A DNA stretch of 64,000 nucleotides from Agelas oroides. Taxonomy: Eukaryota; Porifera; Demospongiae; Agelasida; Agelasidae. Shown in pieces: positions 1-47,393 of this stretch. The stretch's first letter is position 1; every line of letters starts with the position of its first letter. The position numbers were made by a program, and so were the translations under genes. Below the pieces are notes generated by a model that did not search any database, was not told the DNA's origin, and saw nothing but the letters and a program-made list of their open reading frames with translations. The stretch covers positions 5,719,920-5,783,919 of the forward strand of contig OX422189.1 in NCBI GenBank assembly GCA_949130485.1, read 5' to 3'.

Positions 1-905
1 CTGTACAAATGTAAGCAAGGGACTAAGTTGCAATCTTCCCCATGATATTTTGTAGTCTACACAATCTCTCTTATACGTACACACGTGTTGTGTGTCACTA
101 CATAAACACCAACACATCCACACCCACGACATATGTGTGTATGTATAAGTGTAGACTACAAAATATCATGTGGAAGATTGTGGTGCTTGCACTTTTAGAC
201 CAATTTAAATATCAATTTTCTAGAAAATGGAATCTGATTTCATGGCCCTTTGACCTCCCATGAAATGAAAAATCTAATTTAGGAGGCATATATCCCACCT
301 AGTATAGTTTTGCCTATACAACAGGTGGGGCTTAACTGTGATAATTTCCCTCCCTGAGGGCTACAAGCGAAATTATGGCTCATAATTCCCTCTCCATTTA
401 TTTTTAGCTCACAGTCCACTACACTGCTATACTATATAGTATAGATTTTATACACAGTTGTGTGTAAATAATATTGAAGTTACTGTAAACACTTACACAT
501 GTACAGATGTGTTTACTGTAATAACAACAAGTGACCAATCAGGTGGAGTATATAATAGTTATAGCACAGGTGGCCAGAGATTTATGGCTGTAGTAAACAA
601 ACCTTGTCCTCAGGCTAGCTACGCCCTCGGACTCAGTCTGTTTACTGTCATAAATCCCTGGCACTGTGCTATTGTAATGTTCGGCGCGGCTGCGGGGCGA
701 GTCAGCGGCTTCAACCAGAAGAATGGCAAAAATCATAGTATTTGCATGTGCCAGGACAACTTGTGCATACAGACTCACTCTTTATAGCCAGGTACAAAAT
801 CAGGGCCGATATAAAATCGGGCTAGACTCATAAAATCAGGTGTGACTAACCGTGTACAGATATTACAAGACAGATAATACAAGACAGATATTACAAGACA
901 ATACA

Positions 906-1266
906 TCAGGTTTCATTCCTCCCAAGCTCCTGGTAATAACTCCCAATGTGCTGGGGAGCTGAAAGGAATCACTGGGTCAACAGTAGTGTCACCTATGTGG
1001 AGGTGAGCACACCCAATCCCTACCTCCATAGTGGACAATGACTCGGATGTCTGGCTTGTCAATCCCCATCCCAAATGCTACCGTTGCCACAATGCACTGT
1101 GTGCCTGTATATATTTGTGTGTGCATGTATGTGTGTATGTGAGAAGAACAGTCAGACAGACAGACAGGCAGACAGACAGACAGACAGACAGGTACATGTA
1201 CCTGAAGCTCATCCCTGAGGAACTTGTGATGAGTCTCTTTCCTCTGCTCATTGCTCAGACCAGGTA
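906..1266 (-). pseudogene. RecQ-type DEAD/DEAH helicase, C-terminal exon fragment (copy 1)
   Basis: Three consecutive exons read on the minus strand. Exon 1 (about 1266-1202) encodes GLSNEQRKETHHKFLRDELQ and ends at a GT donor. Exon 2 (1096-1024) starts CIVATVAFGMGIDKPDIR and runs to VHYG, helicase motif V. Exon 3 (958-906) reads APQHIGSYYQELGR and then reaches a stop three codons later. Phases agree (0, then 1) and introns are 105 and 65 bp, typical of compact invertebrate genes. In RecQ proteins the last motif is Q-x-x-G-R-A-G-R-D-G; here it ends at QELGR-NET-stop, so motif VI is cut. No earlier exons with the ATP-binding motifs were found, so this is probably a captured or decayed fragment. 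Confidence 0.72.
1153..1191. repeat. GACA microsatellite
   Basis: About nine to ten copies of GACA with one GGCA variant, inside the first intron of the RecQ-like fragment. An identical copy is at 5805-5843. Confidence 0.9.
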
Positions 1267-1268
1267 CT

Positions 1269-2110
1269 TGTCACAGTTCACAGACTTTTTTTTATTTAAA
1301 TGGGGCAGGGGTGGAATTGTCAGGAACATTCGCTCCTCTTCCTCCTCCCACTGTGAGAAAACAACTTGAAAAAGGTCAACTGGACTTTGTCACCTTTTCT
1401 GGCACATTTCTTACTCATGAAGGGTCCTCCCCACACCATAGTGCCTAACTCCACTGGAACTAAAACAATGGTGGAAACCACACTTTAATGGGTGGATGAA
1501 AGGTGCCACGCAATCTTAATATTTCTAGTACAGAGACCCTACTTTTACATGCATTCAATGGTGCTTACACTGCAAAAACAAGTTAGTTGTTTTAACCACA
1601 GAGTGGTTGCCCTGGTTGCAGACAAACTGGAGAGACATTTAGTTATGAGAGGTTCACTTTGGTATTAGAGACTAATTGCATAAGGCAACCCAAGGGGCAG
1701 CTGCCAAGTTCATCTTACAACCACAACACACTGAAAACCCTCATAACATCTGTCATTCCCTCACCTGAGAGCATGGAAGTTCCTTACTGGAACAAAAGTG
1801 CATTTGTAATGCTCCTTCACAGATGTTCTCCCACCTCATTCCCAAATCAATCTACAGCTTCTTATGGCACATTCAGCTGACTATCATATGCTACTTTCCT
1901 TATCTCTGTTGAGTATTGTCAAATACATAGGCTATGTCAGCCTTTTTCTTGTGCAGGTTATCAGTTGAAGATGGATGGCTATGTGCAGGAGAAGGCGATT
2001 CTGGGTAGCTATGGTAGTGCTGCTGAACTGTCAGGTTGGCAATCAAACACGAAGAATCATCCACTAAATACATACCTACCTGAGGACTATGCATACAGCT
2101 GTTTAAGCCA
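1269..2110. other. No gene recognised
   Basis: Unique DNA. About 1563-1690 resembles the left end of a CACTG(C/T)AAAAAC repeat also seen at 25477 and 50449. A minus-strand open frame at 1900-2094 has a protein-like composition but no recognisable domain or splice signals. Confidence 0.4.
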
Positions 2111-2931: not shown

Positions 2932-3663
2932 TTATATGGCAACTTGACGTTTGTAAATCCTTTTTGTTGAGCTTACTCCGAAAACTTCATCAATGCTAGC
3001 ATCACACTGTGACAGTGCTCCCTCCACCCTCTCCCAGTTTGCAATGCACGGCTTCTTGCACCTGAAGATTTGGTTCTGAGCATTCACACCAAACACTTCT
3101 TCTTGCCCACCAGCTGTTATGTGCTTCAGTTTTCCAGGAATATGTCGCCATGATCCACTTCCATCTACCGGGCGTGTGAATATATTATTGGCAGAGTTTA
3201 CACCATAGACATAGTCATAGCCGCCATCAATCTGTTTGAGTCGTCCAGGGACATTTATCCATGATCCTGTGCATGGCTTTTTGCACTTGTAAATGTAGTC
3301 ATTTGAGTTGACACCCCAGATGTAGCCATTCCCTGAAGCGGAGACATGCTTCAGTCGGCCAGGTATAAGCTTCCAGCTGTTGCCACTTCCATCAACTGGG
3401 CGTTTGTAGATATAATCGTTTGCATTCACTCCCCAGACCTCCTCATCACCTGCGTCAATTTGCTTAAGAACTCCTGGAATATGGGTCCAGAAGCCTGTGC
3501 AAGGTTGCACACATTTGTAGATTGAGCCACCACTGTTGACTCCCCATACATAGTTGACAGAGGCAGTCACGTGTTTCAGTTTACCTGGAATCAGTTTCCA
3601 TTGTCCAAGGGCAGGGCTGAGTACAGCACTCAGCAGGAGTAGTCCAAGAGCCCAGCTGTGCAT
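2932..3663 (-). CDS. Secreted tectonin-repeat lectin (fish-egg-lectin type), 243 aa
   Basis: Single-exon gene. The frame is open upstream to 3819, but I chose the ATG at 3663 because it is followed at once by a clear signal peptide (MHSWALGLLLLS...PALG, cleavage expected near residue 20). The mature part is six tectonin repeats of about 37 residues, each with a W-x-x-(I/V)-P-G-x-L-K start and a V-(W/Y/F)-G-V-N core; the sixth is the most divergent. Alternate repeats end in a K/R-C-x-x-P-C pair, suggesting regularly spaced disulfides. Tectonin proteins form six-bladed beta-propellers that bind bacterial lipopolysaccharide or glycans; a role in surface or innate recognition is inferred from the family. 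There is no transmembrane segment. Flanking exon relics on both sides show local duplication. Confidence 0.88.
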   Translation of the reverse strand: MHSWALGLLLLSAVLSPALGQWKLIPGKLKHVTASVNYVWGVNSGGSIYKCVQPCTGFWTHIPGVLKQIDAGDEEVWGVNANDYIYKRPVDGSGNSWKLIPGRLKHVSASGNGYIWGVNSNDYIYKCKKPCTGSWINVPGRLKQIDGGYDYVYGVNSANNIFTRPVDGSGSWRHIPGKLKHITAGGQEEVFGVNAQNQIFRCKKPCIANWERVEGALSQCDASIDEVFGVSSTKRIYKRQVAI

Positions 3664-3753
3664 TGCTACTTGGTTGCTGTATGTGCAAATCGAATAAGAA
3701 TTTGTGACTGCACTACAAGAGTATATGTCAGTTTGGGACTCTCTGATCTTTTT

Positions 3754-3761
3754 TTTATATA
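3754..3761 (-). promoter_or_regulatory. TATA-like box of the tectonin gene
   Basis: TATATAAA on the minus strand about 90-100 bp before the chosen ATG. It supports the downstream start at 3663, because the box lies inside the longer open frame. Confidence 0.45.
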
Positions 3762-3879
3762 TGCCTGATACAATAGAAATGCATGCTTCCATAGTTGTTA
3801 TGCCTATAGCTAATGGCAATCAACTTTGAACCATGCAAACATGTTTGAGATCAACAATCAAAATAGCTGCCTGCAATCA

Positions 3880-4139: not shown

Positions 4140-4650
4140 CGAGTTACACTGAAGGAGTTTATACATAATACTCTCTTAATGCATTCTACCACATAAACAC
4201 CAACATATCCACACCCAACACACAAGACATGACTGTGTGCGTACGTATAAGAAAGATTGTGTAGCAGTTATAGAGTTACACTGAAGGAGTTTATACATAA
4301 TACTCCCTCGAAGCATTTCACCACATAAACACTGACATATCCACACCCAACACACAACACATGACTTGTGTGTGTACGTATAAGAGAGATTGTGTAGACT
4401 ACAAAATATCATGGGGAAGATTGCAACTTAGTCCCTTGCTCACATTTGTACAGTAGTTATAGAGTTACACTGAAGGAGTTTATACATAATACTTCCTCGA
4501 AGCATTTCACCACATAAACACTGACATATCCACACCCAACACACAACACATGTGTGTGTACGTATAAGAGAGATTGTGTAGACTACAAAATATCATGGGG
4601 AAGATTGCAACTTAGTCCCTTGCTTACATTTGTACAGTAGTTATAGAGTT
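4140..4650. repeat. Tandem array, unit about 185 bp
   Basis: Units start with GTTATAGAGTTACACTGAAG near 4267 and 4456, with a shortened unit before (4140-4262) and a more diverged one from about 4000. Each unit carries a GTATAAGAGAGATTGTGTAG block that also appears, inverted, at the start of both 1.57-kb copies. Confidence 0.75.
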
Positions 4651-4734
4651 ACCTGTACAAATGTAAGCAAGGGACTAAGTTGCAATCTTCCCCATGATAT
4701 TTTGTAGTCTACACAATCTCTCTTATACGTACAC
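4556..4734. repeat. Perfect palindrome, arms 82 bp, loop 15 bp
   Basis: 4556-4637 is the exact reverse complement of 4653-4734. The left arm is the last tandem unit and the right arm is the start of duplicated copy 2, so the junction of the two repeats is itself a hairpin. A weaker inverted copy lies at about 4795-4838, and likewise 143-186. Confidence 0.85.
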
Positions 4735-6217
4735 ACGTGTTGTGTGTCACTACATAAACACCAACACATCCACACCCACGACATATGTGTGTATGTATAA
4801 GTGTAGACTACAAAATATCATGTGGAAGATTGTGGTGCTTGCACTTTTAGACCAATTTAAATATCAATTTTCTAGAAAATGGAATCTGATTTCATGGCCC
4901 TTTGACCTCCCATGAAATGAAAAATCTAATTTAGGAGGCATATATCCCACCTAGTATAGTTTTGCCTATACAACAGGTGGGGCTTAACTGTGATAATTTC
5001 CCTCCCTGAGGGCTACAAGCGAAATTATGGCTCATAATTCCCTCTCCATTTATTTTTAGCTCACAGTCCACTACACTGCTATACTATATAGTATAGATTT
5101 TATACACAGTTGTGTGTAAATAATATTGAAGTTACTGTAAACACTTACACATGTACAGATGTGTTTACTGTAATAACAACAAGTGACCAATCAGGTGGAG
5201 TATATAATAGTTATAGCACAGGTGGCCAGAGATTTATGGCTGTAGTAAACAAACCTTGTCCTCAGGCTAGCTACGCCCTCGGACTCAGTCTGTTTACTGT
5301 CATAAATCCCTGGCACTGTGCTATTGTAATGTTCGGCGCGGCTGCGGGGCGAGTCAGCGGCTTCAACCAGAAGAATGGCAAAAATCATAGTATTTGCATG
5401 TGCCAGGACAACTTGTGCATACAGACTCACTCTTTATAGCCAGGTACAAAATCAGGGCCGATATAAAATCGGGCTAGACTCATAAAATCAGGTGTGACTA
5501 ACCGTGTACAGATATTACAAGACAGATAATACAAGACAGATATTACAAGACAATACATCAGGTTTCATTCCTCCCAAGCTCCTGGTAATAACTCCCAATG
5601 TGCTGGGGAGCTGAAAGGAATCACTGGGTCAACAGTAGTGTCACCTATGTGGAGGTGAGCACACCCAATCCCTACCTCCATAGTGGACAATGACTCGGAT
5701 GTCTGGCTTGTCAATCCCCATCCCAAATGCTACCGTTGCCACAATGCACTGTGTGCCTGTATATATTTGTGTGTGCATGTATGTGTGTATGTGAGAAGAA
5801 CAGTCAGACAGACAGACAGGCAGACAGACAGACAGACAGACAGGTACATGTACCTGAAGCTCATCCCTGAGGAACTTGTGATGAGTCTCTTTCCTCTGCT
5901 CATTGCTCAGACCAGGTACTTGTCACAGTTCACAGACTTTTTTTTATTTAAATGGGGCAGGGGTGGAATTGTCAGGAACATTCGCTCCTCTTCCTCCTCC
6001 CACTGTGAGAAAACAACTTGAAAAAGGTCAACTGGACTTTGTCACCTTTTCTGGCACATTTCTTACTCATGAAGGGTCCTCCCCACACCATAGTGCCTAA
6101 CTCCACTGGAACTAAAACAATGGTGGAAACCACACTTTGGGTGGATGAAAGGTGCCACGCAACCTTAATATTTCTAGTACAGAGACCCTACTTTTACATG
6201 CATTCAATGGTGCTTAC
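4653..6217. repeat. Copy 2 of the near-identical 1.57-kb duplicated block
   Basis: Same sequence as 1-1568. The arrangement is a 4652-bp unit repeated in tandem with a truncated second copy. Near-identity over noncoding DNA means a very recent duplication or an assembly overlap. The block begins directly after a 15-bp loop, forming the right arm of the 4556-4734 palindrome. Confidence 0.9.
5558..5918 (-). pseudogene. RecQ-type helicase, C-terminal exon fragment (copy 2)
   Basis: Identical to the fragment at 906-1266, shifted by 4652: exons about 5918-5854, 5748-5676 and 5610-5558. It stops at the same place inside motif VI. Being inside the duplicated block, it gives no independent evidence of function. 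Confidence 0.72.
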
Positions 6218-27166: not shown

Positions 27167-28907
27167 AGCAGCTGCCGCATACCATTGTCGTTACCAATAC
27201 AGTGCAGCCTCACTGAGCTACAAGTCACTTGGACACTTCAGTGAAGTGTGCACTTAGCTACTGGCTTGCTGCACTACAGCACATTCCATGCGTCCACAGC
27301 ACTTTTGATGGCAACGGCACTTCTTTACAATATTGACCAACGTCTCTCAATAGGCTTTGCATGGTGTTCTTAGCTCCTACACAACTCAGATACAGATACA
27401 CAATAGTAGCATGGCCATCTTCTGCCCAGCAAGTTCCCTTTGTTTATCATCTCGCCTCTAGCTACATCCGTTGTAGGTCTTAGACATACATTAGTGTTCA
27501 TGCAGTAGCAAGTAAGCTTCACTGCACTCGACATGCAATGGCTATGCTTATTGTTAGAAGCTGGATTGTGCACCTAACTCAGATTCTCTGTTCCCTGTTC
27601 CACTTTTGCTCCAATCTAGCCAGACTTCCATACTATGTGTACCTAGTGGGTTAGCTTAATGACTTCTTTATGGCAGGACAAGCTGATTTGTCCACCTGCA
27701 TTCAAGTCACTGTTTTCTTTCCAAAAGAAAAAGAAAACATTAGCTAGAAACATTTTCTAGCTCGTTCAGTGTGATGGTTGGCCATTTGTGTGAGTAAAGC
27801 TTGCTGAAGTGGGCTTGAATGTTTGTGAATGTGCTGGAAAGGTAGAGAGCCATCCTTGAAGATGGGTGTCATCACACAGTTGTCTGGCAAAGGTACTGTA
27901 GAAAGCTGACTTTTCGGGCTTGTAAGCCCACCCATTTTTATGCTAGCGAGAATGTGTGTAACTTGGCTCCATTCTAGGGGCTATGACAGGGAGTAGGTTT
28001 GTGGACATAACTCCCTGGCCTGGAGATGAGTGGGAAAAAACATACCTAGTTTTGTAGGGGGTGAGTTGAGCTTTCTGAACTGGGCTCAGTTTTGGTTGGT
28101 TTGAGTGGGGGTGTGGCTATGTTGGTTGAAAGCCAACATAGCAAAATTGTTGTTTTTGAGGTCAAATGTGTGTTTTGGCCTGTAGACTGGGATTGAAGTG
28201 GTCCCAGGACAAATCCATACGTAAAGTTTTTATTTGTTTTGTCTGTGTGTTGATGATGTGGTCAGACTGGGGGTGGAGCCTTGGAGAGGGTGCAAATTGT
28301 TTTTAGCTGAGAGACTAAAAATTAAGGTAGAGAAAGCAGTTTGGTGCTAACTTTTTGTGAATCTTGCCTACACTTTGACTTTACCCAGCCCATTCATCCA
28401 TCCACATGACTCGGAAATTTGTGATTTAAGGTTGTCCTACCTAACTAGTAACTAGGAATACGCATAGCACATGCGTATGATACCTCGTGCCGCGCATTGC
28501 GCATGCGGGCGGGGTGCGCGCAGCAATTGTCAGAAATTTTACACTGCTGGTTTAGTCAATTTAGTGGGAGCCAAAAGAACAATACCTGGCTTGATGAGAG
28601 TCTCCAGTACGTGCTTTCTACTTTAAAACTCTTTGTTGTTCTTTTCTTGCTCTCTTGGCTTCTACGGTGGGCTGACTTCTTTGCCTTTTGTTTTTTCTCA
28701 GAGTCCCCAGCCGTCGGCTGCGTTCAGCACTCGTTTATGCACTTCGCTCCGCAAAATACGTAACCAGATATTATAGTGCCAGTAGATGGATGCATAATTA
28801 TAATTTGCAAGCAGACAAGTGTCTTAATGAAGCTTGCTAAAATTGTGAGGGTGAAAGACTGATGAATAGTAATTTATATGTTTGTGCACTGAACTATGAA
28901 ATTGCAC
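27167..28907. other. No gene recognised
   Basis: GT-rich 27950-28330 lacks long frames. 28440-28520 is a CpG-rich spike around CGCATTGCGCATGCGGG. No repeats with matching ends were found. Confidence 0.4.
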
Positions 28908-29182
28908 ACTGACAGGCCTTGCTAAACTTACTGGAAGTGGCATTAGCTATGTACATACCTGTGCTGTCATAGGCCTTAACAATAATTATCTCTGCATTCA
29001 TTTACACATACAGATAATATTGTTTAGTATTGCAATATTGCTTACATTCTTACACTTCAAGGGCTGGCACATAGCTGTGATAAAAATACTACCATCCAGG
29101 AAAGTCCCAAATAGACTGCTAAATTTGTTTACTGTACCACACACAAGACTAAATTATGCTTTGTTTATATTGCAGGTACACT
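28908..29182. repeat. Diverged single copy of the foldback arm at 46156-46440
   Basis: Shares GGAAGTGGCATTA, ACATACCTGTGCTGTCATAG, AAAAATACTACCAT and ACACAAGAC in the same order as the left arm of the 46.1-46.9 kb foldback, but has no inverted partner and no 39-bp array. It looks like the pre-foldback form of the repeat. Confidence 0.6.
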
Positions 29183-34974: not shown

Positions 34975-35030
34975 CTGAGTGTGCATATAAAACTTACATG
35001 TAGTTTGGATCACCACATTTACAATAGTCT

Positions 35031-36216
35031 TAGCTTGCAGTTAAGTACTACATTGTTGTTTGATACATAGTCTCGTCCCAACGCTCCTAGCTTCTGACCG
35101 AAAACTGCCTACATGCAGTACCAGAAATGGTGCCCCTACAAGGGGAAAAGAGTGGTTTCTACACCTGTTCGTGCTAACAAGGTCCAGCCAGTGCTGACCA
35201 AGAACACTCTAAGCTAGCCAAGGCAGCTGCCATGTGCATGTGCATGTGCATGGCATGTCTTGAATATACCTGCCCACCTCACCTCTTTCAAAACCTATCT
35301 TCAAAACGGATTGCACCAACTGATAACATGCGGCCAAAGTCAGACGATACCAAAAAGCATCAGTGGTGGTTAAAGGTTTAATGTTCAAAAACAATCAAGC
35401 TATTTTCCCAAGAAGGCCAGCTTTGCAACACATTTTGATTGTCCACTTATTATGCTCTTTTATACATATTTCAGTGAAACAAGTCAATTGTAAATCATTG
35501 TAATAGAGATCCTGTACAACTATTGCTTCACAGCAAATACACGTACAGGATTATACATTTCCCTCTTTCGCTGTCTTTCATTTTAATATATGTTCCTTTC
35601 CTCTATGGTGTAGAGATAGCATAACTATGTATCTAAAATACAACTGATTTTAAATAGTATTCACAACATTGAATAATTCCTTTTACCTGCTTACTTGCTT
35701 GCTTGCATGTGTTTATATGTTTCAGGACTACAATAAGTGAATAAAGTGATCATGAGAGGTGGCACACCCCTCTCTTTAACCTAAACCCTCTCATTATCTA
35801 CTATTGATCATTCCGTCAACAATAGTAAGCTCCCACTACAGGAAATGAACTGCTAAGTATTGAAAAGAGAACTAAAGGAGAACCCCAAGACACAACTATC
35901 TGAAATCCACCATCCCCCATCACAAGCTTGAATGAAAATGCACCCATTTGCAAACTCGATAAAAGCTGGAAGATGGTGTATATATAAATTTTTGTTGCTG
36001 TTGTTTCTAGCTGTCATTAGCTACCATATGTGCACTATTTGTGGTTCAAAATATTTTGTTGTGAGCAGTATATATCTGTGCCTACTTTCAGTACATTAAC
36101 ATATCTCCTAGTTACATAAATGATGTGCTTTCAGCAAAAGTATAAGTGTACAGACTGTACTGTATTCCACAAGTACAAAACATGGAGACAATATAATCAT
36201 GTTCTCCACAGTTATG
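35031..36216. other. Unit 1/unit 2 spacer
   Basis: No gene. 35065-35606 matches 41198-43170 apart from insertions, and 35607-36216 matches 30222-30836. This is the downstream flank of the TM gene copy at 36217. Confidence 0.6.
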
Positions 36217-38297
36217 TTAAAGGTTAGCTCTACGTTGTTGACTGTTCCCACATGGAGGAAAAGTCTCAGTCTCAGTATCTTGAGGACAATGGTCTGAGTT
36301 TCTTTCTTTACCAGCAAGGAGTGGCTTGCACTCTTCTTCACTTCCATATTCCTCAGGGTGTAGGAGTCTGTCTGGTTCTTGTGGCTCCAAGGTTGGATGA
36401 TCTATACGTTTCTTACACATGTGAAGAGCCTTTGTCCATGTCAGCAGTTTGTATGTTACATAAACGATGAAGTATATCAAAGGTACAGTTGAAAGCACAC
36501 CCAAAATTTGAAAGGGAACAGGGGCAATGTATCGTGCATACATGTTACAGAATAGTGCAAAAGCAAAGAGAGCAAACGCAATGGAGTCCCAAACATTAAG
36601 CCAAAAGTTGTCCTTATAAGGGCGAAAAAGAAGAAAAACTAGTGCGGCGATAACCAGGCATACAATTGATACCATCTGTTTGTACATGCTAAATACACTG
36701 CCACCATACATTGTAAGCAGAAGCACTATTCGAAGAACAAGATAAAGTCCTGCAAAGTACCGACAGTCCCTTGTACCATTCGTACCATTCTTGTAGCAAC
36801 CCTGGAAGACATCAGCAAATGCATGTAGTGCAAGCCACCTTCTACCACAGCACCCAAGACACTTTTGAAAGAGTTTGGTTGGATACAGTAAGAGAACAAG
36901 TGCAGGAAAGAAGATAAAGATACAAAGAACAAAGATGGAAAGGAGGGCAAATGGGAGGTGTTTGTCACCAAACCATTCAAGTGATGCATCGTGAAACACC
37001 CTCCTGGGTGTGGTGACTGTGAACTCTAGACTCATTACTTCTGATTATTATTTCCGTTTCCTCCTTCTCATGTCAGATTATGTAATCATCTCTATATATT
37101 GCACGCATGTATATTCTATGCTCAGTCTGTACTTGGTTTCCTTTTGAAACTGTGCTGTTCAAGATGCGTGCCCACTTTGTCACAACACCACACTGGGTGG
37201 GTCAAGTACTCCTCCAGTTGGGACATACAGCTGCGTGTAGCTCAGCAGCTGAAGTGATACGAATAAGATCTTGGAGTAGGAAAGAAGAAGAAATGCAGCA
37301 AATGTATGAACAAGTGAAGCTACTGGGTCCCACTGTCTTCCCCACTTTTGTCTCCACAAACAAACCATGACTTGGCAGTCTCCAGCATGTAACTGCACAC
37401 ATATGTATGCAAAGACAGTTAACAACAAAGGGTAGAAAGCTACAGCATACTCAAGAGCAATGACATGGAGAGGACTAATCTGATCACTAACACAAAATGG
37501 AGGAATGAGATAGCGAAAAAAGTCCAGATTCCAGATACCATATATGGTGCTAATTGTCAACCATATTCCATGGCTAAATGATGTGCTTTCAAAAGTGACC
37601 GACAAATTTATAGTACTGACAATTAACTGACATGCAAATATGTATGCATTCAGTGGTCCAGAAGTAATACGAACTTGGAACATAAGCATGAAGAGGAAAA
37701 GTAAGGTAGTGGGGAAAGTAGCAAGGAACACGTACAATGTCCAACCAAGGCCACTGCTCATGCAGTGAATACATTGCATTGAATAGGAAAAGATGGCAGT
37801 TCCCAGACCCTCCTGGTATTGACTGCACAACACGCCAGTGCGGTTCAGTTCATCACAAAGAAACTGATTCAATTCAGAAACGTTTTGTGGAGGTTTTACA
37901 TAGACCCCATCAACATCACCTGTTTGGTTGACAAAATGACACCCACCGATGAACACCACATTATATAGTCCATGCAGTTTCCTATGAGCAGCAGGGTCTG
38001 TTTTGTATTTGAATCACACAGCACAGTCCTTCCAGGACGGTGTATTGGTTCACCACATTTACAGTGGTTTGAGTTGTTGGTGACAGGAACGAACCATGAT
38101 GGACAGCCATGATTGACTGGTTTTTCCCTGTCCAATTGAACAGCATTTCGTATCATTTCTTGCTGGCCATTAGAGCATTCAAGGCAGCCACAAAGAAAGG
38201 CACCAAACAGCAAGATACTGTTGACGCTCACAGCCATGAACATGGTAAACAACATTGAAACCCAAATTCTTGCTACAATTCTCAGGAGTGAGCCCAC
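36217..38297 (-). pseudogene. TM receptor-like protein, copy 2, broken
   Basis: Three pieces cover the full family length. The N-terminal part (38297-37896) loses frame near 37960, where about ten bases are missing after GNCMDY. The middle part (37959 to about 37200) is open but lacks ten residues of the Cys-rich intracellular loop (30-nt in-frame deletion near 37350). The C-terminal part (about 37010-36217) is open. A 182-bp insertion at 37011-37192 separates the last two. It is closest to copy 1 at the N-terminus and to copy 3 at the C-terminus, which suggests gene conversion or unequal exchange. Confidence 0.85.
37011..37192. mobile_element. 182-bp insertion inside TM copy 2
   Basis: Flanked by CTGGGTG (37004-37010 and 37193-37199). 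Ends are short inverted repeats around TGTGGTG..TGTGA. Intact TM copies show one CTGGGTG and no insert, defining the empty site. Superfamily uncertain; 7-8-bp duplications fit hAT. Confidence 0.7.
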
Positions 38298-39324
38298 GCC
38301 ACACAGGCGGCTCAGAGTGCGCTTTTACACGGAGGTATTTCCGCGATAACAGGAAGTTCAACTCACTTTGCTTGGGTGGGCTACTTGCAGGGGTGGTTGG
38401 CTCGCAGGGGTGGTAGGCTGACTTCATCGAATTGCTGGTGAAAAACGGCCTTGCATACCGAAACGTGTGTTAGATGGACCAATATCACCAGTGGATGTTG
38501 TCCAATGTTGTAGACATTTATATACTAGCAAATAGTGTCTGCACGGAAGGACATCCGTTTATTGTACTGGTATGAGACACAGGTACAGGCTTATTTAGTC
38601 GGCTCCAGCGAGCAGTAGACCACTGTAGTCACGAGCTTGGTGGAAAATTTATATTGCCTATGTAACCTAACTGACTTGTAATAACTTGCTGGCCCATAGA
38701 TGTGTAGTAGTAGTAGTGATTGTAGTCAGCAGTGTGTGTACCTCTTTTCCACCCACACAGTGTAGAACTCTTCTCTATCTCTCAGTGAGTTAGCTGTGTG
38801 AACCGTGTATTATGCCCCTGCCGGGAAACTGGAAAAAAGTATTTTTGATGAAGCAATAAGTAAGTTGGTGACCTTGTTTAGTACTAAGTTCTTGATGCAG
38901 TTATATAGACTGTTACATCAGTTTGTTAGCATTGAGCTTGGGAAAACTTATATCCACTGGCTACTTCCATGGTATTGAAATACTGATCACATCTACTGAA
39001 GTGTCATGTATGGCTTATATAGTCTTATGCATTCTACAACAGCATAATTATATGTAATAGCAAGACATGCACGGATTTAATTTAGCTCCTCATGAATGTA
39101 TAGACTCTATATGCTTTCTAAAAATGAGGCTAGCACTAAATAGACCTCTGTCTGTGAATACTTAAATTATTCACAAAGGAGTGTCAATACATGTAACATA
39201 AATCATGAGAATGGTGTCTGTTTGCTTTGGCCCAAGTGATGTTTCTGGGTGGGAGAAATTCAGAATGCAACAATCAGTACTTTGGTGTTTGGAATTGTAA
39301 CCAATTGGCTCTCTGTCTGCTACA
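38298..39324. other. 5' flank of TM copy 2, shared with copy 1
   Basis: Matches 32772-33800 closely, including GGAGGTATTTCCGCGATAAC about 30-60 bp before the longer start. Likely contains the common promoter; no element can be assigned. Confidence 0.5.
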
Positions 39325-40535: not shown

Positions 40536-41153
40536 CAGGCCCGTAGGCAAGGGGGGTTCGAGGGGGTTCGGTCGAACCCCCCTTTTGGCTCGAAAAGATT
40601 TTATATGCACCGCTTAACTGTGCATTTTAAGTGCCCCACCGTTTGAAGTTGGTCCACTAGCCTCAATGCTATTGAGAATCACCGCCGTCAAAACAAGTCT
40701 GGTTGCAGCTATGCGAGTTTGTTCATGGAGGACCAGCGCGGAACGCTTGCGTAAGCTGTTTACGCCGCTGCGATGAAAGGACGCGCGTAAATACGTGCGT
40801 AAATAAATCGCTATTTCAGGCGCTCGAGAGTTCACCAGTTGTCTTCCAATGATGTCACCCAACCTGCTGCTCTGCCAACCTTAGTACCTTCTCTCTTGGA
40901 AAATTCGAAGTCAGCTTAGCAAACGCCTACGTGGACAGCCAAAGCAATACTCCGCGAACCATCTAGCTACTACGGCTCTGCTTCTGTCCCAAAATAGCCT
41001 CAGAAGCAATCTCAGAGCATCTAATTTCTAAAAATTTTCCTGGGGGAGCATGCCCCCAGACCCCTCTAGTCTTGCATGCTTATGCATGCATACATACACA
41101 TCTGACGTGACACCCATGTAACCCCCCTTTTAAAAATCCTGGCTACGGGCCTG
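40536..41153. mobile_element. hAT-like element, 618 bp, 5-bp target duplication
   Basis: Inverted ends CAGGCCCGTAG and CTACGGGCCTG. Flanking AATAG at 40531-40535 and 41154-41158. The uninterrupted site is visible in units 1 and 4 (AATAG at 35022-35026 and 61811-61815). Contains TTCCTGGGGGAGCATGCCCC as at 6318 and 47290. A 5-bp duplication with CAG ends fits the hAT5 group. No transposase. Confidence 0.85.
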
Positions 41154-43768: not shown

Positions 43769-45646
43769 TTAAAGGTTAGCTCTACGTTGTTGACTGTTCC
43801 CACATGGAGGAAAAGTCTCAGTCTCAGTATCTTGAGGACAATGGTCTGAGTTTCTTTCTTTACCAGCAAGGAGTGGCTTGCACTCTTCTTCACTTCCATA
43901 TTCCTCAGGGTGTAGGAGTCTGTCTGGTTCTTGTGGCTCCAAGGTTGGATGATCTATACGTTTCTTACACATGTGAAGAGCCTTTGTCCATGTCAGCAGT
44001 TTGTATGTTACATAAACAATGAAGTATATCAAAGGTACAGTTGAAAGCACACCCAAAATTTGAAAGGGAACAGGGACAATGTATCGTGCATACATGTTAC
44101 AGAATAGTACAAAAGCAAAGAGAGCAAACGCAATGGAGTCCCAAACATTAAGCCAAAAGTTGTCCTTATAAGGACGAAAAAGAAGAAAAACTAGTGCGGC
44201 GATAACCAGGCATACAATTGATACCATCTGTTTGTACATGCTAAATACACTGCCACCATACATTGTAAGCAGAAGCACTATTCGAAGAACAAGGTAAAGT
44301 CCTGCAAAGTACCGACAGTCCCTTGTACCATTGGTACCATTCTTGTAGCAACCCTGGAAGACATCAGCAAATGCATGTAGTGCAAGCCACCTTCTACCAG
44401 AGCACCCAATACACTTCTGAAAAAGTTTGGTTGGATACAGTAAGAGAACAAGTGCAGGAAAGAAGATAAAGATACAAAGAACAAAGATGGCCAGGAGGGC
44501 AGATGGGAGATGTTTGTTACCAAACCATTCAAGTGATGGATCATGGTACACCCTCCTGGGTGGGGGAAGTACTCCTCCAGTTGGGACATACAGCTGTGTG
44601 TAGCTCAGCAGCTGAAGTGATACGAATAAGATCTTGGAGTAGGAAAGAAGAAGAAATGCAGCAAATGTATGAACAAGTGAAGCTACTGGGTCCCACTGTT
44701 TTCCCCACCTCCGTCTACAACTGCTGAAACACTTACAAAACACTCTCCACAAACAAACCATGACTCGGCAGTCTCTAGCATGTAACTGCACACATATGTA
44801 TGCAAAGACAGTTAACAACAAAGGGTAGAAAGCTACAGCATACTCAAGAGCAATGACATGGAGTGGACTAATCTGATCACTAACACAAAATGGAGGAATG
44901 AGATAGCGGAAAAAGTCCAGATTCCACATACCATATATGGTGCCAAATGTCAACACAAGTACATGAATAAATGATGTGCCTTCAAAGGTGATCGACAAAT
45001 TTACAGCACTGACAATTAACTGACATGTAAATATGTATGCATTCAGTGGTCCAGAAGTAATATGAACTTTGAACATAAGCATGAAGAGGAAAAGTATGGT
45101 AGTGGGGAAGGTTGCAAGAAACACGTACAATGTCCAACCAAGGCCACTGCTCATGCAGTGAAGACATTGCATTGAATAAGAAAAGATGGCAGTTCCCAGA
45201 CCCGCCTGGCATCGGCTACACAATACTCCAGTGCGGTTCAGTTCACCACATACAAACTGACTCAATTCAGAAACATTTTGTGGAGGTTTTACATAGACCT
45301 CATCAACTTCACCTTGTTGGTTGACAAAAGGACATCCACCGATAAAGACCACATCTTTTTCTTCATTATAGTCCATGCAGTTTCCTGTCAGCAGCAGAGT
45401 CTGTTTTGTATTTGGATCACACAACACAGTCCTTCCAGGATGGTGTATCGGTTCACCACATTTGCAGTGGTTTGAGTTATTACTGACAGGAATGAACCAT
45501 GATGGGCAGCCATGATTGATTGGTTTCTCCTCGGCCAACTGGACGGGTTTCCCGTTCATTTCTTGTTGTCCATCAGAATATTCAAAAACGTCGCAGAGTA
45601 AGGCAATAAAAAGCAGAATATTCGTGACGCTCACGGACGCAGACAT
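43769..45646 (-). CDS. ~10-TM receptor-like membrane protein, copy 3 (625 aa)
   Basis: Intact single exon beginning MSASVSVTNILLFIALLC, a signal peptide without the 20-residue extension of copy 1. The ectodomain keeps the same cysteines (GCPSWF, HCKCGEP, NRTGVLCSRC) and all hydrophobic segments. The tail reads EEYGSEEECKPLLAGKERN. The C-terminal third is almost identical to copy 2, pointing to recent exchange. Its upstream flank differs from copies 1 and 2, so it may have another promoter; the array duplication breaks at its 5' end. Confidence 0.85.
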   Translation of the reverse strand: MSASVSVTNILLFIALLCDVFEYSDGQQEMNGKPVQLAEEKPINHGCPSWFIPVSNNSNHCKCGEPIHHPGRTVLCDPNTKQTLLLTGNCMDYNEEKDVVFIGGCPFVNQQGEVDEVYVKPPQNVSELSQFVCGELNRTGVLCSRCQAGLGTAIFSYSMQCLHCMSSGLGWTLYVFLATFPTTILFLFMLMFKVHITSGPLNAYIFTCQLIVSAVNLSITFEGTSFIHVLVLTFGTIYGMWNLDFFRYLIPPFCVSDQISPLHVIALEYAVAFYPLLLTVFAYICVQLHARDCRVMVCLWRVFCKCFSSCRRRWGKQWDPVASLVHTFAAFLLLSYSKILFVSLQLLSYTQLYVPTGGVLPPPRRVYHDPSLEWFGNKHLPSALLAIFVLCIFIFFPALVLLLYPTKLFQKCIGCSGRRWLALHAFADVFQGCYKNGTNGTRDCRYFAGLYLVLRIVLLLTMYGGSVFSMYKQMVSIVCLVIAALVFLLFRPYKDNFWLNVWDSIAFALFAFVLFCNMYARYIVPVPFQILGVLSTVPLIYFIVYVTYKLLTWTKALHMCKKRIDHPTLEPQEPDRLLHPEEYGSEEECKPLLAGKERNSDHCPQDTETETFPPCGNSQQRRANL

Positions 45647-46155
45647 GGTGGGGAGAGTCTGTACACGATTTAGTATGCATGCAATGCGGCTGCATTTTGT
45701 GGAAGTAGCAACGTCCGGTCACGCCCTTTATTTGCTGTGGATAACCGCATCAGATAATGAGTATCCGCAACGTCAATGGTGAGCTGGTAAATTTCCAATA
45801 AAGCAGCTAGCCCAGACAATTGTCTGCTAGCTAAACCATGCAGGCTGTTAGGCTATTATTCAAGCTTAGGAACCAGATATCGCAATACATTTGTAGTAGA
45901 AAAAGGGCTTAATCACCCACACCCTGAGCTCCAGCTGGGAAGTCACCAGCACTGAAGGGTTGACCAGAAAGTGGTCATCTAGTTGAAGGCATGGGGTGAA
46001 CTATATCATATTCCAGTTTACAATAACCTAGCTAGCTACCTCTTGCAAGTGGATGTGTTCACCACATGCAAGCAGACCCAGTATGAGATGTCTTTACCCA
46101 GCATCTGAAGCAATATGTGCGCAGCCACACACTGACAGGCCTATAAGCTGATCTT
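45647..46155. other. 5' flank of TM copy 3, no gene recognised
   Basis: Not shared with the other copies. Contains no frame of interest. Confidence 0.4.
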
Positions 46156-46872
46156 GCTACACTCACTGGAAGTGGCATTAACTATATACATACCTGTGCT
46201 GTCATAGACCATTCAATAATGCTCCCTACATTGTTTACATTGTTACTAAGACGGTACACTTTAAGGACTGACACATACCTGTGGTAAAAATACTACCATA
46301 TACATAAGAAGGAAAATCCCAATTAGCTAGGGTACTAAACTTGCATGTACTTTGTTTACTGTTTCTAAATTAGGTTTTGACTGTACTGTATGACACACAA
46401 GACCATATACTTCATTGTTTAGATTGCTGGTACACAGTGTACAAGCCACTCCTTGCTGGTAAAGAAAGAAACACAGTGTACCAGCCACTCCTTGCTGGTA
46501 AAGAAAGAAACACAGTGTACCAGCCACTCCTTGCTGGTAAAGAAAGAAACACAGTGTACCAGCCACTCCTTGCTGGTAAAGAAAGAAACACAGTGTACCA
46601 GCAATCTAAACAATGAAGTATATGGTCTTGTGTGTCATACAGTACAGTCAAAACCTAATTTAGAAACAGTAAACAAAGTACATGCAAGTTTAGTACCCTA
46701 GCTAATTAGGATTTTCCTTCTTATGTATATGGTAGTATTTTTACCACAGGTATGTGTCAATCCTTAAAGTGTACCGTCTTAGTAACAATGTAAACAATGT
46801 AGGGAGCATTATTGAATGGTCTATGACAGCACAGGTATGTATATAGTTGATGCCACTTCCAGCGAGTGTAGC
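46156..46872. mobile_element. Foldback element with a captured TM-gene tail array
   Basis: Arms of ~285 bp (46156-46440 and 46588-46872) are near-perfect inverted copies. Between them are four 39-bp tandem units, each CACAGTGTACCAGCCACTCC plus TTGCTGGTAAAGAAAGAAA. 31 bases of the first unit equal positions 43860-43890 of TM copy 3 on the opposite strand, the part encoding KPLLAGKERN. Because 39 is 13 codons, frames run through the array on both strands; they are by-products. Confidence 0.85.
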
Positions 46873-46877
46873 TGTAG

Positions 46878-47393
46878 CAGGGCCGTAGCCACCGGTCCGG
46901 TTAGTCCGGTTTCAACCGGACCACTTTTCCCGGGCCTCCCCCATGGCTTGCTTGGCGTCGCCAAATAGGGCCAGTGCTCGCGAACGCCCATGGCACACAC
47001 ACAGCGTGGTAATACGTTAAAACATAATACGAGATGGCTGCAAACAGTGCGAAAGAATCTCTTCCGAGTCTTCCAACAACTTTCTGTTCTTCCAAGCGAA
47101 CGATTAGTCTCACAAGCCTCATCTGCGAAGGGTATGGCTTGTGAGATTAGCGAATGGAAAGCTGCTATTTGGCGCAACGGGCAGAAAGGGTAGCTATTCA
47201 TGCGTATAGAACTCTGTCGCCTGGCCTCCGAGAAGCATCGTTTTGGCCCAAAAATTGTCTCAGAAGCAATCTCATAGCCTCTAAATTCCAAAAATTTTCT
47301 GGGGGGGGGCATGCCCCCAACCTCCCCTAGCTGTTGCGTGCTTACGCACGCACCACTAACCTGACCACGACAAATTTCATGGCTACGGCCCTG
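46878..47393. mobile_element. hAT-like element, 516 bp
   Basis: Ends CAGGGCCGTAGCCA and TGGCTACGGCCCTG; internal TTTTCTGGGGGGGGGCATGC block shared with 40536-41153. It interrupts the edge of the foldback's right arm. No target duplication is evident. Confidence 0.72.

What the first reader, a model, noticed from the sequence alone, without database searches (positions are those of the whole stretch)
46156..46872. Foldback element whose centre is a 4x array of the neighbouring gene family's own tail codons
The centre of an inverted repeat holds four 39-bp units, each with ~28-31 bp identical to the KPLLAGKERN-coding segment of TM copies 2 and 3, 2.5 kb away and on the other strand. A diverged arm at 28908-29182 lacks both array and partner, so capture, inversion and amplification seem to have happened at this locus. 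A transcript would form a long hairpin displaying sequence complementary to the receptor mRNA, which could feed small-RNA silencing of the family.
Basis: partly seen in the sequence, partly recalled or inferred. Interest (0 to 1): 0.82.

Follow-up and report, generated by a model that had tools for sequence, protein, structure and literature searches.

The report
Palindrome with captured neighbour-gene fragments
A DNA palindrome picked up one, and probably two, short pieces of the gene next door while being copied or repaired, and one piece then repeated four times; it reads as a clear fossil of known kinds of copying error, with no sign so far that it regulates the gene.

Summary
Two 285-nt arms (98% complementary) flank four 39-bp units. 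Unit 1 matches 31 nt of gene copies 2 and 3 exactly; elsewhere in the window only copy 4 comes near (1 mismatch).

New here: a second exact gene match, 17 nt, in the arm itself; 1 of 5000 shuffled arms has one as long. Only copy 3, of four, matches both exactly. But 12 of those 17 bases also occur in the arm's relative, so this piece is tentative.

Without the insert the tip is a near-perfect palindrome: 276 of 280 pairs around one base. The insert lies between 11-bp direct copies of that tip. One slippage plus two unit gains rebuilds the element exactly.

At the 4 mismatched pairs the left arm keeps the relative's base, and similarity to the relative continues past the left arm only. This favours fold-back copying over a mobile element.

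The silencing idea is weak: the array is sense on the + strand and sits in the loop. Expression could not be tested.

Verdict: capture-and-slippage fossil, no shown function.

The parts
46156..46440 (+). left palindrome arm, probably the original copy
   Evidence: 98% complementary to right arm; at the 4 mismatched pairs outside the central base the left arm has the base of the relative at 28905-29182
46588..46872 (-). right palindrome arm, probably the inverted copy
46432..46602 (+). array: four 39-bp units plus a 15-bp remainder; units start at 46432, 46471, 46510, 46549; remainder 46588-46602
   Evidence: the first 15 bases read ACACAGTGTACAAGC in unit 1 and ACACAGTGTACCAGC in units 2-4 and the remainder
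46442..46472 (+). 31-nt fragment identical to the sense strand of gene copies 2 and 3 (KPLLAGKERN codons)
46405..46421 (+). 17-nt second match to the gene family in the left arm (IYFIVYV codons), exact to copies 3 and 1; tentative as a captured piece
   Evidence: 12 of the 17 bases are also in the relative
46607..46623 (-). mirror of the 17-nt match in the right arm
43850..43880 (-). possible donor of the 31-nt fragment, in gene copy 3 (copy 2, 36298-36328, is identical here)
   Evidence: 0 mismatches
44013..44029 (-). possible donor of the 17-nt match, in gene copy 3, starting 149 nt upstream of the other piece in the gene
   Evidence: 0 mismatches
43769..45646 (-). gene copy 3, open frame of 625 codons plus stop from its ATG; no Pfam match
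28905..29182 (+). diverged relative of one arm, without partner or array
   Evidence: 200 of 252 ungapped columns identical to the left-arm row, flank included
46128..46142 (+). 15-nt stretch left of the left arm, also left of the relative (28905-28919); not found right of the right arm
   Evidence: 2 of 1000 shuffles reach its score; the first 14 nt: 2 exact places in the window
46878..47393 (+). transposon-like segment with 15-nt inverted ends (1 mismatch) abutting the right arm, without a matching target duplication

Best explanation
This is a fossil of replication or repair errors at one locus. (1) An old single-copy segment, like the one at 28905-29182, was copied back on itself at a small inverted repeat at its right end, giving a nearly perfect palindrome (inferred; favoured by the arm differences and the left flank). 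(2) Tentatively, a short piece of the gene family, 17 nt or less, replaced arm sequence near the tip; it is in both arms, so it came before or with step 1, or spread between the arms. (3) The palindrome tip broke or stalled and 28-31 nt of the 3' coding part of gene copy 3 or 2 were copied in, leaving 11-bp direct copies of the tip on both sides (the structure is shown; the pathway, polymerase-theta-type end joining or microhomology-mediated template switching, is inferred). (4) Slippage between the two near-identical 15-bp tip copies, followed by two further unit gains, made the four-unit array (shown to be sufficient). The longer spacer would make the palindrome less breakable (inferred from yeast work). 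No function is needed.
For: Arms and array. Gene match. In 50,447 bases outside three excluded gene regions, every exact match of 15 nt or more to the gene-family coding sequence is inside this palindrome; the longest elsewhere is 14. Second match: 1 of 5000 shuffled arms has an exact 17-nt match, and 0 of 400 reach its alignment score in an earlier run. Of 4 gene copies only copy 3 has 0 mismatches to both pieces. Taking out the insert gives 276 of 280 paired positions around a single base. One slip plus two unit gains reproduces all 717 bases; plain fourfold amplification of unit 1 leaves 3 mismatches. At the 4 mismatched pairs outside the central base, the left arm has the relative's base. 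A 15-nt left-flank match between element and relative: 2 of 1000 shuffles reach it. The gene segment aligns in all four gene copies and in frame in the three whole ones aligned, so it belongs to the gene. In yeast, break frequency fell as spacers grew from 0 to 9 bp and Mre11 attack needed loops under 9 nt (PMC8053094, abstract and passages). Fold-back annealing at short inverted repeats makes inverted duplications in yeast and is inferred in humans (PMC10622511 and PMC3907307, passages).
Against: Four arm differences are few: all on one side has a chance of 1 in 16, or 1 in 8 two-sided. A fifth mismatch in the 285-nt arms, at 46436, was left out because it is the central base of the tip; there the relative agrees with the right arm. 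Of the 17-nt match, 12 bases are also in the relative, so only five base differences speak for a gene origin, and the match was tested after it was seen. TA stands on both sides four bases inside the arm ends, so a TA-inserting transposon is not excluded. The 14-nt flank word allowed 2 mismatches is expected 0.57 times by chance. Right of the right arm there is a 9-of-10 match to the relative's left flank and beyond the transposon-like segment a 9-nt match to the element's left flank; both are within shuffles (189 and 72 of 500) but faint continuation is not excluded. The slippage test rebuilds the sequence from pieces of itself; its independent content is one changed base in units 2-4. No allele or related genome without the insert could be examined. 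The missing target duplication of the segment at 46878-47393 is unexplained.
Confidence: 0.65

Rival explanations
1. It is a non-autonomous foldback transposon (MITE-like) that captured a gene fragment in its centre, here or elsewhere, and moved as a unit. The diverged relative is a half element that lost its partner.
For: Long inverted arms; TA on both sides of CACTC...GAGTG four bases inside the arm ends; inverted repeats are common in the window (25 listed pairs of 30 nt or more within 1 kb, this one included, some overlapping); foldback elements with tandem arrays are known (Tetris).
Against: Similarity with the relative runs past the left arm end and was not found past the right. No target duplication other than the dinucleotides TA or GC. 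Only one diverged relative found in the 64 kb. A matching gene copy lies next door.
Confidence: 0.22
2. It is a functional hairpin-RNA locus that silences the gene family through small RNAs.
For: Very stable predicted hairpin (-542 kcal/mol against a mean of -173 for 20 shuffles). The stem holds 17 bp of gene sequence in both senses. It begins 510 bp upstream of copy 3's ATG.
Against: The 31-nt matches are in the loop, not the stem. A + transcript is sense. Stem matches to the genes are at most 17 nt. Any long palindrome folds well, so stability is no evidence of function. No expression data.
Confidence: 0.04
3. The palindrome or the array is a sequencing or assembly artefact.
For: Fold-back reads and misassembled repeats are known artefacts (recalled). 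No reads could be inspected.
Against: Four substitutions between the arms and a gene-derived insert with one changed base shared by units 2-4 are not what a simple read artefact would give.
Confidence: 0.04
4. The gene tail came from the element rather than the reverse.
For: Sequence identity alone does not give a direction.
Against: All four gene copies align through the segment, including copy 1, which is diverged there.
Confidence: 0.02

Closest known systems
Templated sequence insertions at double-strand breaks (TSIP; alt-EJ filler)
   Same: A short stretch copied from elsewhere in the genome sits at a presumed break (PMC5110952 and PMC7407515, passages).
   Different: Here the site is a palindrome tip, 11 bp of the recipient are duplicated around the insert, and the insert was then amplified. 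In PMC5110952 duplications of 5 bp or more mark class 1, which is ascribed to LINE-1, while class 2 (break repair) has none.
Fold-back inverted duplications and template-switch hairpins
   Same: An inverted copy made at a short inverted repeat (PMC10622511 and PMC3907307, passages; PMC8794818, abstract and the part of the introduction shown).
   Different: Those are chromosome-scale and those are RNA-gene stems. This is an internal inverted copy of about 280 bp.
Foldback transposons with tandem arrays (Tetris, Galileo)
   Same: Long inverted arms plus a tandem array (PMC4079207, abstract and section 19).
   Different: In Tetris the array lies in the arms and is suggested to derive from them. 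Here it lies in the centre and derives partly from a host gene.
Gene-fragment-capturing transposons (Pack-TYPE)
   Same: Coding fragments inside inverted repeats (PMC8903248, search listing and start of abstract only; the inverted repeats recalled).
   Different: Here the captured pieces are about 31 nt and, tentatively, 17 nt or less, and mobility is not shown.

Membership tests
MITE or foldback transposon | long terminal inverted repeats | tested here: met
   285-nt arms, 98%
MITE or foldback transposon | target-site duplication | tested here: inconclusive
   only TA or GC, sliding the boundary from -15 to +12
MITE or foldback transposon | many similar copies in the genome | not testable with these tools
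   no genome held; one diverged half copy found in the window
MITE or foldback transposon | similarity between copies ends at the inverted-repeat ends | tested here: not met
   15 nt shared left of the left arm and left of the relative (2 of 1000 shuffles reach it); right of the right arm only matches within shuffles
Templated sequence insertion | insert matches a donor elsewhere in the genome | tested here: met
   31 of 31 nt to copies 3 and 2, about 2.6 and 10 kb away
Templated sequence insertion | no recipient duplication at the junctions (class 2, break repair) | tested here: not met
   11-bp recipient duplication on both sides; junction similarity weak and imperfect (38 of 41 over the extended match)
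Minisatellite by slippage | tandem units explained by slipping between flanking direct repeats | tested here: met
   exact rebuild, including the changed base; sufficiency only
Hairpin-RNA silencing locus | target sequence in the double-stranded stem | tested here: not met
   the 31-nt pieces lie in the loop; longest stem match to the genes 17 nt
Hairpin-RNA silencing locus | transcription and small RNAs | not testable with these tools

The most novel reading that the evidence does not exclude
The palindrome begins 510 bp upstream of copy 3's ATG. If the copy 3 transcript starts beyond it, that transcript would carry a leader hairpin whose loop shows four antisense copies of its own 3' coding segment, plus a 17-bp stem match: a gene that acquired a self-complementary regulator from its own sequence by copying errors.
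Probability: 0.05. Interest if true: 0.75.

Novelty: new variant of a known kind. Interest (0 to 1): 0.35.

Why it matters
If the reconstruction is right, one short locus records a chain of steps in order: inverted duplication, captured insert at the palindrome tip, and birth of a minisatellite, with a matching donor gene next door. It would be a natural example of how a breakage-prone palindrome gains a spacer and how a coding fragment becomes a tandem repeat. It also suggests a route by which self-complementary gene fragments could arise upstream of a gene.

Tried and rejected
Looked for relatives outside the window and found none: the 20-nt sequence shared exactly by both arms and the relative in viral contigs and genome contigs; an 18-nt part of the array core in viral contigs; the gene family in viral contigs (0 confirmed of 10 candidate stretches) and genome contigs (0 of 40); the element in plasmids (none). 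The window looks eukaryotic (an impression), so these collections were poor places to look and absence means little. Pfam gave no family for 8 of 9 window proteins given. The PDB profile search gave one hit, E 0.0033, with no stretch passing on its own, set aside as chance.

Considered continuation of the right arm directly or beyond the transposon-like segment: best scores lie within shuffles. Considered sequence from right of the relative displaced to the right of the palindrome: scores within shuffles. Considered the 9-mer TTGCTGGTA, shared by the arm tip and gene copies 2 and 3, as the entry point of the insert: it does not give the observed junction order (reasoned, not computed). Considered the gene tail coming from the element: disfavoured. 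Splice-donor-like words in the arms: noted only.

In one search the arm-versus-relative comparison was misaligned by one base; it was redone (8 mismatches in 43 bases, 5 of them within the 17-nt match). Confidence in the best explanation was lowered from a first 0.68 to 0.65, and the transposon rival raised from 0.20 to 0.22, on rechecking, because 12 of the 17 bases turned out to be shared with the relative and a fifth arm mismatch had gone untold.

Full report
What is there. No genome is held for the window; its genes and repeats look animal-like (an impression, not a test). At 46156-46872 two 285-nt arms, 98% complementary, enclose 147 nt. Tandem Repeats Finder reports 4.4 copies of a 39-bp unit at 46432-46602 with 99% match. 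As RNA the + strand is predicted to fold as one long hairpin, -542 kcal/mol against a mean of -173 for 20 shuffles, with the array in the loop.

The gene match. The 29-nt core of the unit is found 7 times in the window with up to 3 mismatches: four in the array, exactly in gene copies 2 and 3, and with one mismatch in copy 4; 100 shuffles give none. Unit 1 extends the exact match to 31 nt. The four gene copies align through this segment, copy 1 being diverged there (three whole copies as proteins), so the segment belongs to the gene and the element is the receiver. All copies are on the minus strand, and the array matches their sense strand on the plus strand. This piece does not tell copy 2 from copy 3.

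A second gene match. Comparing arms and genes showed an exact 17-nt match at 46405-46421, mirrored at 46607-46623, to copies 3 and 1. In 50,447 bases left after taking out three regions around the gene copies, every exact match of 15 nt or more to the gene-family coding sequence lies in this palindrome; the longest elsewhere is 14. Of 5000 shuffled arms, 1 has an exact match of 17 nt, 7 of 16 or more and 23 of 15 or more; 0 of 400 reached the alignment score in an earlier run, where the largest was 16. Copy 3 alone has no mismatch to either piece: copy 1 has 0 and 6, copy 2 has 1 and 0, copy 4 has 3 and 1. The two pieces are in the same order and sense as in the gene. Against this: 12 of the 17 bases are also in the diverged relative, so five base differences carry the case, and the match was tested after it was seen. 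It is held as tentative.

Order of events. Taking out the insert and one of its two flanking 11-bp copies leaves a palindrome with 276 of 280 positions paired around a single base. The insert therefore sits at the tip. At position 12 the four units and the remainder read A, C, C, C, C. A single insert followed by one slip between the two 15-bp near-repeats carries the right-hand C into the new unit; two more unit gains then give the window sequence base for base, while plain amplification of unit 1 leaves three mismatches. This shows sufficiency, not proof, since the pieces come from the window.

Origin of the palindrome. The relative at 28905-29182 matches one arm only (200 of 252 ungapped columns with the left-arm row, 187 of 251 with the right; both rows include flank). 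The 285-nt arms differ at five places. Four are transitions, at 46165, 46179, 46268 and 46320, and at all four the left arm has the relative's base; the fifth, 46436, is the central base of the tip, was left out of that count, and there the relative agrees with the right arm. The similarity with the relative continues left of the left arm for 15 nt (2 of 1000 shuffles reach that score); right of the right arm the best matches lie within shuffles. The only target-duplication candidates are TA and GC. Together these favour fold-back copying of an existing segment over insertion of a transposon, though not decisively: four differences on one side have a 1 in 16 chance, and TA is the signature of Tc1/mariner elements (recalled).

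Mechanism from the literature. In yeast, palindromes with spacers below 9 bp are attacked by Mre11, and breakage fell as spacers grew, levelling off from 9 to 12 bp, the longest tested there (PMC8053094, abstract and passages); the spacer here is 147 bp. Fold-back annealing at short inverted repeats yields inverted duplications (PMC10622511, passages; PMC3907307, passages). Templated insertions mark alt-EJ and polymerase-theta repair (PMC7407515, passages), and microhomology-mediated break-induced replication gives repeated template switches (PMC2621351, abstract). Either could have made the insert; the sequence does not separate them. A permanent spacer would make the palindrome less fragile, which may be why it persists (inference).

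The silencing idea. A plus-strand transcript would show sense sequence, in the loop. A minus-strand transcript would show antisense, still in the loop. The stem has at most 17 nt of gene sequence. The palindrome begins 510 bp upstream of the start codon of copy 3, whose frame is open, so a long leader of that gene could include it; nothing here shows that it does.

Verdict. The explanation is a chain of known copying errors with an unusual result. No title or abstract start listed in the nine paper searches made describes a host-gene-derived minisatellite at a palindrome tip; those searches cover open-licence papers only, list at most 20 papers each, and none was aimed at exactly this.

Noticed in passing
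window 1-1568 and 4653-6217: Two stretches 99.7% identical, 4652 bp apart, with an 84-nt inverted repeat at the junction, 4554-4637 / 4653-4736: a recent tandem duplication or an assembly fault.
   Followed up: no
window 36217-38324: Gene copy 2 is split over three listed reading frames; its 3' part is about 97% like copy 3 while its 5' part is about 86% like it (33 substitutions and 27 gap columns in 1843 for the 3' part and its flank), so it looks like a mosaic pseudogene or a gene-conversion product.
   Followed up: partly
window 40536-41153: A transposon-like insertion with inverted ends and a 5-bp target duplication AATAG; the duplicated segment at 35015-35040 shows the empty site.
   Followed up: partly
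window 46878-47393: A segment with similar inverted ends abuts the palindrome's right arm but has no matching target duplication, hinting at a rearrangement breakpoint there.
   Followed up: partly
window 30837-57737: A cluster of four copies of a gene for a long, hydrophobic, probably multi-membrane-span protein; no Pfam match for the three copies given to the search and no convincing PDB relative.
   Followed up: partly
window 2935-3819: A Tectonin-domain protein, E 1.1e-67.
   Followed up: no
window 28961, 46196, 46281 (-); 46747, 46832, 17111 (+): CAGGTATGT, a splice-donor-like word (recalled), occurs six times in the window, five of them in the palindrome arms or their relative.
   Followed up: no
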